Of a stretch of DNA of 64,000 nucleotides, positions 20,215 through 23,830 are shown piece by piece. The number at the start of each line of letters is the position of its first letter. Position 1 is the stretch's first letter. A model generated the notes under the pieces. That model was given only the letters and a program-made list of their open reading frames with translations, was not told the DNA's origin and made no database searches. The translations under genes and the position numbers were made by a program. Source of the DNA: Polytrichum commune (Eukaryota > Streptophyta > Polytrichopsida > Polytrichales > Polytrichaceae); contig OX485809.1 in the NCBI GenBank assembly GCA_950295325.1, positions 310,001 through 374,000 on the forward strand, written 5' to 3'.

Positions 20215-22782
20215 TCACTGATTCTTTACAAAATACGGAATTTTATGTTCAGGCACACTCCTTCGCAAGGCATCAACCCTTGCTTTCGAAGCTGCTACAG
20301 CCTTCCATTGCAAGAGGGGCTGGGCCAGGTCTTCCTCGTCCATGACCACATTGAGTATACAGCTTCCACCTGTCTTGGGCTTTCGGGCATTTAGGGACAA
20401 TCGAGACCTCCAAGGGTTTGAACTGGGCTTGCTACTCACTCCTTCCAAACAGGAGAGAAGACCAGGATCCGAAAGAAGAACATCATCGGAAAGGAAAGCA
20501 TCATTCCACAGAAAAGGATCATCCAATTGAATAGCATTGGCCTCTACATGTCCATTTTCATTCCCAGGTAGACATGAAGAGGGTGGCTCCACTGGAACTC
20601 CTTGCCCAGTGTTTGGACATGCATGGCCATTTTCTATATTCTCAATGTTATCTCGAGTCCTAAGAGGTGGTCTGAAGTTGAGCTTGGGTCTCCCAATCTT
20701 GTTGTGAGGCACAGCATTTTCTTTTCCAGCTGCAAAGACAGGCTGAATGCAATTCTCTTGTTCAGCATATACCAATTCAACATCCTTTGGAAACCTCCCA
20801 CCTCCCAAAATCGACGTCTTCATCCGCTTCCTATCTGCAGAATAAAGAAGGTGCTCGCCCCAATTTAATTCTTTTGGAACCAGACATCCATTGCCAATTG
20901 AAGCATCCTGTGTAGCAGGGACTTCACAATCATCATTTGCCCCCTCTCTGAGCAAGGCCTCTGCCCTTGCTTTCCCAGCTGCCGATGGCTTGAAGTGCTT
21001 TCCTGAAGCAAATTGAAAGAGCGGCTGAGCTACATTGTCCTCTCCACTATGTATGGCTCCATGGCTGCTTTGTGGAGAGCGAACTCCTTTACCTGGACGT
21101 TGTCCTGCAATTGGAGGCACTTGTTGGCTCTGCTGCTGAGATTGAGGGATATCAGTTCTCTCCTGAACAAGATGAACCGCTATGCAATCATCAGCCACCT
21201 CCCGAAGTAAGGTCTTCACCCTGGTCTTTCCAGCCAACAATGTGTTGGAATGCTTTCCAGAAGCAGGTTGAAAGAGAGGCTGAGCCTCCTGCCCATCATT
21301 AGTATGCTTCACTTGCGGAGGGCTGCCCATCGTTTGCTCAGGCTGCTGTCCACTACACATAGGCAATCTTGAGCTGTTGACTCGTCCTGAATTCACATCA
21401 ACATGGCCTACTCCTGAAGGGCACACTGTTTGCCCTGGTTGCTGTCCACTACATGTAGGCAAACTCAAGCTGTTGACTAATCCAGAATTCATACCAACAT
21501 GGCCTATTCGTGAAGGACACACTCTCTGCCCAGATTCCTGTCCTCCAACTGCTGGCAAACTTGGCTTCCATTTAGTCTTTATCACCTCACTCTCATCCTT
21601 GACTAAAGGACCACTTAAGGAGTCACCAGACACCTCCCCTTGTAATAAGGCCTCTGCCCTTGCTTTTGCAGCAGACGATGGCTGGAATTGCTTCCCAGAA
21701 GCAAATTGAAAGAGGGGGGCAACCATGTTCTGTCGTCCAGAATCAATTTTGACATGCTCCAGTTCTGGAGAAGGTGATTTTCCAAGAATTTGGTAAAGAA
21801 TTTGTTTTGCAATTGAAGGTGGTCTGGAGTTCCCCTGATGTGTCTTCAGTTTATCACTTCCTTCTTGCACAACAGGGGAATTTGTAGAATCATCAGCCAC
21901 ACCATAGATCAAGGCCTCAGCCCTCACTTTTGCAGCTCTAGACACCTGGAACTGCTTCCCAGAAGCAAACTTGAAAAGGGGCTGGGCCTCATTCTCCTGT
22001 CCATGACCATTACCTCCTTGTCCATGATCTATACCTCCATGTCCATTATCAAACTTCAATTTGGTGCTCCGTAACTTGAACGAGGAGTTATTGATGCCTT
22101 CTTGCAAATGGTGGACTTCAACAGCAGAAGCAGGAGCAGGAGCCTCTCGTAGCAAAACCTCCGGCCTCTCCTTCCCTAATGCCGATGGCTTGCAATGAGT
22201 TGGGGAATCACCTTGAAAAAGAGCCTTGGCCGTATTTTCCAGTCCAGGAGGCATGTCTCCATGGCCATTAGAATACCCTTCACCATTCTGCAGCACCACA
22301 GTTGGAAGCAAGTTCCTTTTCCAGCGCCGGCCTTGTGTATTTGTGATATCATTACCAAACTCTCGATGATGAGCTTCGGTATCTGCTTCCTCACCTGTTA
22401 AACTCTGCAGCGGCTCCCCCACTGACGTACTCATAGGACTTTCTGAGTAATTGTGGATGTGGCCATTAGGTGCTAAGACGGATGACCCCCCCTCCTCCTC
22501 GACTTTCTGTTTCTTCTCTTCGACTACTTGTCTTGGGGCATTGAATTTCCTCTTGTCACGCACAACACCACCATCACCACCCGCCTTCTGTGTAGTGCAA
22601 TCAACATACACTGAGAGCTCCCGCCTGGATAGCCCCAATCGTCTCTTCCTTGGTGCACTACTACCTAACGATGTCGGTTGAGTCCAGGAGTGTGTCGGCC
22701 GGCTTGGAGCTGATTGCGGTGGAGATCGAAAATCCATAGGTTCTGTATACTCTGCTGCAGAATTTGCGTTATCCTGGGCCAC
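20215..22782 (-). CDS. BRCA2: BRC-repeat, BRCA2-like RAD51-binding protein without a visible DNA-binding domain
   Basis: Long open frame of 855 codons (numbered from 22782). The first codon is GTG and an in-frame TGA lies upstream with no ATG between. So either the first ATG at codon 16 (22737) is the start, or an upstream exon joins at the acceptor-like ggcccag next to 22776. Four clear BRC repeats, the RAD51-binding motif FxxA..SGK: 268-294 (LFKFASGKQF), 357-383 (LFQFASGKQF), 502-527 (LFQPASGKHS) and 587-614 (LFQFASGKHF), each ending in an EALL-type helix. Degenerate ones sit at 187-214, about 679-695 and 820-841. BRC repeats load RAD51 onto single-stranded DNA in homologous recombination. 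The helical/OB-fold DBD of canonical BRCA2 is absent from this frame and from the 3 kb downstream. An acidic-hydrophobic tract lies at 752-779. I recall a DBD-less BRCA2 reported in the moss Physcomitrium. A donor-like gtaaag near the stop leaves a further exon possible. Confidence 0.88.
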   Translation of the reverse strand: MAQDNANSAAEYTEPMDFRSPPQSAPSRPTHSWTQPTSLGSSAPRKRRLGLSRRELSVYVDCTTQKAGGDGGVVRDKRKFNAPRQVVEEKKQKVEEEGGSSVLAPNGHIHNYSESPMSTSVGEPLQSLTGEEADTEAHHREFGNDITNTQGRRWKRNLLPTVVLQNGEGYSNGHGDMPPGLENTAKALFQGDSPTHCKPSALGKERPEVLLREAPAPASAVEVHHLQEGINNSSFKLRSTKLKFDNGHGGIDHGQGGNGHGQENEAQPLFKFASGKQFQVSRAAKVRAEALIYGVADDSTNSPVVQEGSDKLKTHQGNSRPPSIAKQILYQILGKSPSPELEHVKIDSGRQNMVAPLFQFASGKQFQPSSAAKARAEALLQGEVSGDSLSGPLVKDESEVIKTKWKPSLPAVGGQESGQRVCPSRIGHVGMNSGLVNSLSLPTCSGQQPGQTVCPSGVGHVDVNSGRVNSSRLPMCSGQQPEQTMGSPPQVKHTNDGQEAQPLFQPASGKHSNTLLAGKTRVKTLLREVADDCIAVHLVQERTDIPQSQQQSQQVPPIAGQRPGKGVRSPQSSHGAIHSGEDNVAQPLFQFASGKHFKPSAAGKARAEALLREGANDDCEVPATQDASIGNGCLVPKELNWGEHLLYSADRKRMKTSILGGGRFPKDVELVYAEQENCIQPVFAAGKENAVPHNKIGRPKLNFRPPLRTRDNIENIENGHACPNTGQGVPVEPPSSCLPGNENGHVEANAIQLDDPFLWNDAFLSDDVLLSDPGLLSCLEGVSSKPSSNPWRSRLSLNARKPKTGGSCILNVVMDEEDLAQPLLQWKAVAASKARVDALRRSVPEHKIPYFVKNQ
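21331..21522 (-). repeat. Tandem 32-residue duplication inside the BRC protein
   Basis: Residues 421-452 and 453-484 of the BRC protein are two adjacent copies of one 32-residue unit (VCPSRIGHVGMNSG... and VCPSGVGHVDVNSG..., each closing with CSGQQP). They lie in the spacer between BRC repeats 2 and 3, and the underlying 96-base units are direct tandem repeats. Confidence 0.85.
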
Positions 22783-23830
22783 AAACCCCGCTCGTTTGGA
22801 ACCCCAGGAGCGTCAAAGCTCCCCACCGCGCGGATGTTCCCTGAATACCAAGTACATTCTTGAGGGTCAAATGGAATAAGTGAAAAGTCTATGATGCAAC
22901 CCTTCTCAAGATCTTACCAATCACATGTCACCCATAAAATTCCTGGTCATTCATTTAAACAAAATGAATCCCTGTATTTTCTTCACAACGTTCGTGATGG
23001 CCTTCACATCTCATAAGTGGAGCGACAAGCTACATTTTTGAGCTTCGGGACTAGTCCCAATAATCCATCACAAATTGGATGTGGCAATTATAGTACATGT
23101 GAATAAGATTGCATCCACGATGTAAAGCCCTTGTTGCGCAACATGATGATGCAGAACCCTAATTGCACAATCTCAACAAAAGCTCAAATGCATTGAATCC
23201 CTTGACACTGCAATTCCTCCCGTTTCCTGACTTTCCCTGACAACTACACATCATTCAGAAGGAGAAATGCATACCCAAGAAAAACGGCCTTCTCCGAGTT
23301 ACGATGATCTCCAGCTTGAAGAGGAAATTGACCACACACTAGGAAATTGGCCTTCTCCAAATTTGAGCTAACCATGAGTCCATATGAGCCCTAAGAAGAG
23401 GAACTGACTGCCTCCATAGCCACAAGCGGAGTCTCGCAGGCTGAATTACTTACACACACAACTGCTGGATGTACCGAGAACGCAATTGGGCAAGAAACTA
23501 ACCGACCTAATTCTCAGAAGAGCACAGGGAGCTCGAACCATGGCTCCTAAAACAATCTGCGTGCAATTGAAGGATCTAAACCCTAAACCCTAAACCCCAG
23601 AGCAGAGGAATCGACGAAGGAAGAAAACAAGAGTGAGATCTGAAATTTTGACGAAATTGAAGCATGCGGGCGCGGATCTTCCATCGCGGAGGCGATTTGC
23701 TAAATACCCTAAATCATCACTTCGCTCCTCCTTCCCGCGCCCGTCCGAATTTTCAAGTTCTTCGTCGCACCTTCTTCATCTGCATCCCCCACTTTCATCC
23801 ATTCGCATGGGATCCTACTAACCACGCTAC
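22783..23830 (-). promoter_or_regulatory. BRC-protein upstream region with telo-box tract
   Basis: Moderately GC-rich flank upstream of the BRC protein. At 23577-23596 the plus strand reads taaaccctaaaccctaaac, i.e. telomere-type TTTAGGG units forming a telo-box (AAACCCTAA). In plants this element is typical of promoters and early transcribed regions of growth and replication genes. A first non-coding or short coding exon may lie here. No other gene seen. Confidence 0.5.

What the first reader, a model, noticed from the sequence alone, without database searches (positions are those of the whole stretch)
20215..22782. BRCA2-like protein with BRC repeats but no visible DNA-binding domain
Four canonical and about three degenerate BRC repeats fill a single ~850-codon exon that ends with no helical or OB-fold region. 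The next 3 kb downstream offers no such exons before EF-Tu. Canonical plant BRCA2 carries a large DSS1/ssDNA-binding domain. A DBD-less BRCA2 has, as I recall, been described in the moss Physcomitrium, so this may be a second example or the same lineage-specific form. It raises the question of how RAD51 is targeted to ssDNA.
Basis: partly seen in the sequence, partly recalled or inferred. Interest (0 to 1): 0.78.

Follow-up and report, generated by a model that had tools for sequence, protein, structure and literature searches.

The report
Moss BRCA2 without DNA-binding domain
This probably moss gene encodes a BRCA2-like protein that keeps the RAD51-gripping repeats but lacks the folded DNA-binding half, a form already described in three other moss genera, here in a longer version with widely spaced repeats.

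Summary
Confirmed, with corrections. A single minus-strand frame (22782-20215; first ATG 22737, 840 aa) carries four FxxASGK BRC repeats and two decayed ones. It scores 24.9 bits against a small BRC model, versus at most 8.9 in 5000 shuffles; one repeat matches a recalled Arabidopsis repeat at 15 of 24 residues. Pfam's BRC model does not detect them. No helical/OB-fold domain was found in the frame or window, nor in the 408-Mb genome. Those genome searches had no positive control genome; an RPA OB-fold in three pieces was found by the same tool. The closest known kind is the moss-type noncanonical BRCA2 (Chanteau 2025, PMC12412785): single exon, no DBD, loads RAD51, binds ssDNA through a disordered N-terminus. 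This one is twice as long, has repeats 85-146 codons apart and about 235 aa after them, and its part before BRC1 has zero net charge. Seven large chromosomes and an uninterrupted NAS gene suggest, but do not prove, Polytrichopsida. New member of a known kind.

The parts
20215..22737 (-). Single-exon coding frame of the BRCA2-like protein from the first ATG (840 aa plus stop); the finding's 22782 is a GTG 15 codons upstream
   Evidence: the only full-length match of the protein in the genome
22621..22653 (-). Basic cluster PRKRRLGLSRR, candidate nuclear localisation signal
   Evidence: read from the translation; NLS pattern recalled, no predictor run
22144..22221 (-). Degenerate BRC repeat before BRC1 (LFQGDSPTH...LGKERPEVLLRE), FxxA lost
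   Evidence: 10.7 bits with a model of the four repeats vs best 5.0 in 2000 shuffles; DNA copy 22132-22246, 64%
21889..21987 (-). BRC repeat 1 (PLFKFASGKQF...)
21625..21723 (-). BRC repeat 2 (PLFQFASGKQF...)
   Evidence: 15 of 24 residues identical to a recalled Arabidopsis BRC repeat
21332..21543 (-). Linker of 2.2 tandem copies of a 96-nt (32-codon) unit between BRC2 and BRC3
21187..21285 (-). BRC repeat 3 (PLFQPASGKHSNT...), lowest-scoring of the four with the BRC model; proline at position 3 and serine at position 9
20932..21030 (-). BRC repeat 4 (PLFQFASGKHF...)
20431..20577 (-). Acidic-hydrophobic stretch (LDDPFLWNDAFLSDDVLLSDPGLL), candidate RPA-binding segment (inference only)
   Evidence: net charge down to -8 per 31 aa; 20.65% of 2000 shuffles reach this, so the charge alone is not significant
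20260..20310 (-). Degenerate C-terminal BRC half repeat (second, di-hydrophobic module only)
   Evidence: 6.1 bits vs best 5.0 in 2000 shuffles; DNA half unit 20265-20295, 84% identical to 20952-20982 in the BRC4 unit
20224..20229 (-). Donor-like GTAAAG starting four codons before the stop; no DBD-like exon seen downstream

Best explanation
It is the BRCA2 of a moss, of the noncanonical type without the helical/OB-fold DNA-binding domain. Shown here: one long exon, four BRC repeats with the FxxA module and the di-hydrophobic module, two decayed repeats, no detectable DBD, and a RAD51 gene in the same genome whose FxxA pocket is conserved. Inferred: the four repeats hold RAD51 monomers. Disordered segments outside the repeats (an N-terminal basic cluster and stretches in the C-terminal extension), perhaps helped by contact with RPA through the acidic-hydrophobic stretch, bring the complex to RPA-coated single-stranded DNA, where RAD51 is nucleated. 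The single-exon structure suggests (inference, untested) that the moss form arose as an intronless copy of the BRC part of an ancestral BRCA2, after which the roughly 85-codon BRC unit multiplied.
For: BRC model 24.9 bits vs at most 8.9 in 5000 shuffles; rank 1 of 1245 window frames. All 4 repeats score above every one of 2000 shuffles against one Arabidopsis repeat (Arabidopsis letters recalled, the 270-aa stretch they come from is recognised by Pfam PF00634 with E 3.7e-38). No DBD in window or frame. No match in the genome for PF09169, PF09103 or a recalled 580-aa Arabidopsis DBD stretch, while the RPA C-terminal OB-fold PF08646 was found at 2 loci, one of them in three pieces. The published P. 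patens protein has the same plan (single exon, four BRC, no DBD, ssDNA binding outside the BRC repeats). F at BRC position 9, noted there for all four P. patens repeats and differing from human, is present in 3 of 4 repeats here. RAD51 in this genome is a single uninterrupted frame, as the two RAD51 genes of P. patens are intronless, and 11 of 12 recalled FxxA-pocket residues equal those recalled for human. In hamster cells DBD-less BRCA2 truncations restore recombination if the C-terminal region with its RAD51-binding site is added (PMC3240595, passages).
Against: Pfam PF00634 does not see the repeats. Human BRC4 alone is only weakly similar (18 to 86 of 2000 shuffles score as well). The region before BRC1 has 31 K+R and 31 D+E (pI 7.2), unlike the highly positive N-terminus of P. 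patens BRCA2. Local charge patches are no stronger than in shuffles: 64% of 2000 shuffles reach the best positive patch. The control genomes of the DBD searches were silent, and the tool warns that its empty answers alone do not show absence. No transcript or protein data, and no direct alignment to the P. patens protein was possible.
Confidence: 0.85

Rival explanations
1. A canonical BRCA2 whose DBD exons lie downstream and were missed: the transcript leaves the long exon at GTAAAG (20229) and continues into helical/OB exons.
For: A GTAAAG donor-like site starts four codons before the stop; the genome searches are exon by exon and can miss short exons (one search recovered pieces of only three RAD51-family loci).
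Against: No frame in the window resembles the Arabidopsis DBD stretch beyond chance (best tblastn E 1.7, best phmmer E 2.9 over 2795 frames, matches scattered over the window). Only about 3.4 kb separate the stop from the EF-Tu-like frame on the same strand. The published P. patens gene is intronless with its BRC repeats in the C-terminal region.
Confidence: 0.05
2. A truncated duplicate or side copy; the true, DBD-bearing BRCA2 sits elsewhere in the genome.
For: The whole-genome searches are of limited sensitivity and had no positive control genome. PF09104 would miss plant OB3 anyway. Two decayed copies of the C-terminal coding end exist on C2, so parts of this gene have been duplicated.
Against: No BRC family match above cut-off anywhere (though that model also misses this gene), no helical or OB1 match, no Arabidopsis DBD match, no other full-length match of the protein; the frame itself is intact over 855 codons.
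Confidence: 0.06
3. A BRC-repeat protein with another job, for example a RAD51 brake or buffer rather than a loader.
For: BRC4 and the P. patens C-terminal BRC block prevent RAD51 filament formation in vitro with rising dose; the part before BRC1 here is not net positive.
Against: No other BRC gene was found in the genome, and the moss form in P. patens is needed for RAD51 foci and gene targeting (abstract and discussion).
Confidence: 0.07

Closest known systems
Noncanonical moss BRCA2 (P. patens Pp6C10_10830; Ceratodon and Funaria relatives), Chanteau et al. 2025, PMC12412785
   Same: Single exon, four BRC repeats with FxxA and di-hydrophobic modules, no DBD, N-terminal basic cluster, F at BRC position 9 (3 of 4 repeats here, 4 of 4 there).
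   Different: 840 aa instead of 391; repeats 85, 88 and 146 codons apart instead of packed one after the other; about 235 aa after BRC4, with half a BRC repeat near the end; F/F/P/F at position 3, where P. patens BRC1, 2 and 4 have L; glycine after FxxAS in all four, BRC3 included; part before BRC1 net neutral instead of highly positive. Compared with the paper's description only; its sequence was not at hand.
Canonical plant BRCA2 (Arabidopsis BRCA2A)
   Same: BRC repeats; 15 of 24 residues identical between repeat 2 and one Arabidopsis repeat (Arabidopsis letters recalled).
   Different: No helical or OB1 domain detected; no introns in the long coding frame (that Arabidopsis BRCA2 has many introns is recalled).
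Drosophila BRCA2
   Same: BRCA2 without a canonical DBD (as stated in the abstract of PMC12412785).
   Different: A distant lineage; its sequence was not compared here.

Membership tests
Noncanonical (DBD-less) moss BRCA2 | BRC repeats with FxxA and di-hydrophobic modules | tested here: met
   Pfam PF00634 itself silent
Noncanonical (DBD-less) moss BRCA2 | No helical/OB-fold DBD in the gene | tested here: met
   genome-wide support of limited sensitivity, as a control family
Noncanonical (DBD-less) moss BRCA2 | Single exon | tested here: met
   open 855-codon frame with stop; no cDNA to exclude short further exons
Noncanonical (DBD-less) moss BRCA2 | Comes from a moss | tested here: inconclusive
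   genome unnamed; seven large chromosomes, uninterrupted RAD51 and NAS frames fit a moss, no direct identification
Noncanonical (DBD-less) moss BRCA2 | Highly positive disordered N-terminus that binds ssDNA (property of the P. patens protein) | tested here: not met
   charge part only: 31 K+R vs 31 D+E, pI 7.2 for aa 1-250; aa 1-100 are basic, pI 9.9. Binding not testable. Treated as a property of one member, not as the definition of the kind
Noncanonical (DBD-less) moss BRCA2 | Binds RAD51 and is needed for RAD51 foci | not testable with these tools
   RAD51 pocket 11 of 12 residues as recalled for human
Canonical BRCA2 | Helical domain plus OB folds that bind DSS1 and ssDNA | tested here: not met
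   DSS1 family matches are present in the genome (3 matches)
Pfam PF00634 BRCA2 repeat | Score above the curated cut-off | tested here: not met
   no match at E up to 10; the genome search gave one sub-threshold match (E 4.83), on C7 at 18.5 Mb, not at this locus

The most novel reading that the evidence does not exclude
In this lineage BRCA2 brings RAD51 to ssDNA by a route that differs both from the DBD and from the positive N-terminus of P. patens: through the C-terminal extension (basic stretches, an acidic-hydrophobic RPA hook and a terminal half BRC), functionally like the C-terminal part that lets DBD-less mammalian BRCA2 work. The DBD-less form would then date to before the split of Polytrichopsida and Bryopsida, born as an intronless copy of the BRC part of the ancestral gene.
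Probability: 0.25. Interest if true: 0.6.

Novelty: new member of a known kind. Interest (0 to 1): 0.42.

Why it matters
It adds a further genome, probably of an earlier-branching moss (inference), to the three genera reported with a DBD-less BRCA2. It also shows that this BRCA2 type varies greatly in size, repeat spacing and charge, which helps to sort essential from incidental parts of a minimal RAD51 loader. The neutral N-terminus makes the published ssDNA-binding model testable by exchange experiments in P. patens.

Tried and rejected
Pfam scans of the frame and of each repeat and PDB sequence searches with the frame and the repeat profile were all empty, so BRC identity rests on the small model and pairwise tests. 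PF09104 is uninformative: the recalled Arabidopsis DBD stretch itself does not match it. The one PF00634 genome match (C7 at 18.5 Mb, L001 1501-1536) covers 12 of 29 model positions below the cut-off in a 25-aa open frame; taken as chance. The C2 matches are decayed fragments of the C-terminal end (frame-shifted, with stops), not a second BRCA2. The C4 match (E 0.27, one internal stop) falls on the Gln-rich linker and was set aside. Single-sequence AlphaFold models of aa 1-250 (mean pLDDT 45.3) and the last 236 aa (33.9) show no confident fold, but from one sequence that says little. The idea that charged patches mark DNA-binding sites was tested and not supported beyond chance. Naming the species: listings of four paper searches showed no matching assembly; a bacterial and archaeal genome scan with the NAS protein gave no relative (33 pattern matches, none confirmed), only weak support for a fungal-type NAS.

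Full report
WHAT IS THERE. The window is G000:C7:310001-374000 of a 407.8-Mb genome in 64 contigs. On the minus strand an open frame runs from a GTG at 22782 to a TGA at 20217-20215 (855 codons; stop-to-stop 865). The first ATG is at 22737, so the likely protein has 840 aa. Four repeats start PLF[KQ][FP]ASGK. At DNA level there are five copies of a 115-nt unit starting at 20932, 21187, 21625, 21889 and 22132 (spacing 255, 438, 264, 243 nt), the last of them the degenerate repeat before BRC1, and a 31-nt half unit at 20265 that is 84% identical to 20952-20982 in the BRC4 unit. The long step between BRC2 and BRC3 contains 2.2 tandem copies of a 96-nt linker unit. The protein seems to have been built by multiplication of a roughly 85-codon unit that holds one BRC repeat.

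IS IT BRC? Pfam's BRC model is silent. A small model made from four Arabidopsis repeats (recalled; the stretch they come from matches PF00634 with E 3.7e-38) and human BRC4 (checked against PDB 1n0w) gives the frame 24.9 bits, while the best of 5000 composition-preserving shuffles gives 8.9. The best single repeat has 9.6 bits, the best single match in the shuffles 7.9. Because the repeats resemble each other, the total overstates the independent evidence, and the single-repeat comparison is the stricter one. Among the 1245 window frames of 30 aa or more it ranks first, next 8.5 bits. In pairwise tests of 4 repeats against 5 references (20 pairs), all four beat every one of 2000 shuffles against Arabidopsis repeat 3; against human BRC4 18 to 86 of 2000 shuffles did as well. 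The repeats are therefore plant-like and divergent. Chanteau et al. report that PSI-BLAST missed the P. patens protein and that profile-profile search was needed.

NO DNA-BINDING DOMAIN. A recalled 580-aa Arabidopsis DBD stretch (matched by PF09103 at 1.5e-38 and PF09169 at 3.1e-13) finds only chance-level matches in the window (tblastn best E 1.7, phmmer best 2.9 over 2795 frames of 15 aa or more; blastp against the frame itself best E 2.1) and nothing in the genome. PF09169 (E up to 0.001) and PF09103 (E up to 10) find nothing genome-wide. PF09104 also finds nothing, but it does not match the Arabidopsis stretch either and is set aside. The tool's control genomes are prokaryotes and were silent for all three families, and the tool warns that an empty answer alone shows nothing. 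As my own control for exon-wise sensitivity, the RPA C-terminal OB-fold PF08646 gave 5 matches at two loci, one of them in three pieces of 34-53 bits. The RAD51 family PF08423 gave 5 matches at three loci, fewer than the seven RAD51-family genes I recall for land plants, so small or divergent exons can be missed. A second, canonical BRCA2 is unlikely but not excluded. The genome search with the protein itself gave the locus and three minor matches: two decayed fragments on C2 and a weak one on C4.

PARTNERS. RAD51 is encoded by one uninterrupted frame on the same chromosome at C7:214145-214870 (family match), with an ATG-started protein of 350 aa, 115 kb from the BRCA2 locus. P. patens RAD51 genes are also intronless (PMC9956106, passages). 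Of 12 residues that I recall as the FxxA pocket of human RAD51, 11 are identical and one is M158L (numbering from the PDB alignment). The DSS1 family has 3 matches on C6.

WHICH ORGANISM. Seven contigs of 77.9, 70.3, 59.2, 59.1, 52.9, 44.7 and 42.1 Mb add up to 406.1 of 407.8 Mb; the eighth is 0.15 Mb (lengths seen for 14 of 64 contigs). A review passage mentions seven chromosomes as the ancestral moss number (PMC13120521, passages). A nicotianamine synthase gene, horizontally acquired in mosses, occurs here as one uninterrupted 377-aa frame; the paper marks introns for the Funaria and Hypnum types (PMC12454661 section 6 and passages). Seven chromosomes (n=7 in Polytrichaceae, recalled) and this NAS point to Polytrichopsida or a neighbour. 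That is inference.

COMPARISON. The paper on P. patens BRCA2 (PMC12412785; abstract, sections 20 and 25-28, two of three parts of section 5, and passages) describes the same plan and gives function: needed for RAD51 foci, repair and gene targeting; BRC repeats bind RAD51 (BRC3 did not); the N-terminal region binds ssDNA. It names three moss genera, and its main text does not mention Sphagnum, Takakia or Polytrichum (supplements not seen). A search for BRC repeat + BRCA2 + Sphagnum in the held library gave no paper; BRCA2 + moss + intronless gave three unrelated ones; BRCA2 + Physcomitrium + DNA-binding domain gave this paper alone. The present protein differs in length, repeat spacing, C-terminal extension and charge: aa 1-250 carry 31 K+R and 31 D+E.

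HOW IT MOST LIKELY WORKS. Four BRC repeats hold RAD51 (inferred from motif and pocket). Targeting to ssDNA must come from other, probably disordered, parts. The N-terminal basic cluster may be the counterpart of the published ssDNA-binding region, but with neutral net charge over aa 1-250 the C-terminal extension may contribute. In hamster cells BRCA2 truncated after BRC3 or BRC5 is inactive, and becomes active when the C-terminal region, which has a RAD51-binding site, is added (PMC3240595, passages). No charge patch here exceeds chance, so the site of DNA contact stays open.

VERDICT.

Noticed in passing
L008 (G000:C7:213200-215800), 631-1683: Uninterrupted RAD51 gene only 115 kb from the BRCA2 locus on the same chromosome; both partners intronless and linked, possibly chance.
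   Followed up: partly
L006 5558-5774 and L007 4093-3833 (G000:C2 near 64.08-64.09 Mb): Two decayed, oppositely oriented fragments of the C-terminal end of this gene (window 20295-20523), inside a larger stretch shared by both places but not by the BRCA2 locus; perhaps carried by a mobile element.
   Followed up: partly
L022 2604-1471 (minus strand; G000:C4 near 11.91 Mb): Uninterrupted 377-aa nicotianamine synthase frame, a family reported as horizontally acquired in mosses.
   Followed up: partly
G000:C6:24582399-24582569 and 24632350-24632520: Two DSS1 family matches 50 kb apart, besides a third at 13.89 Mb on the same chromosome.
   Followed up: no
G000:C3:13659176-13659826: RPA C-terminal OB-fold family match in an 892-aa uninterrupted frame, besides a second locus on C1 (70.73 Mb) where the match is split into three pieces.
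   Followed up: no
window 23577-23598: Short telomere-like repeat (AAACCCTAAACCCT) upstream of the BRCA2 frame, like the telo-box of plant promoters (recalled).
   Followed up: no
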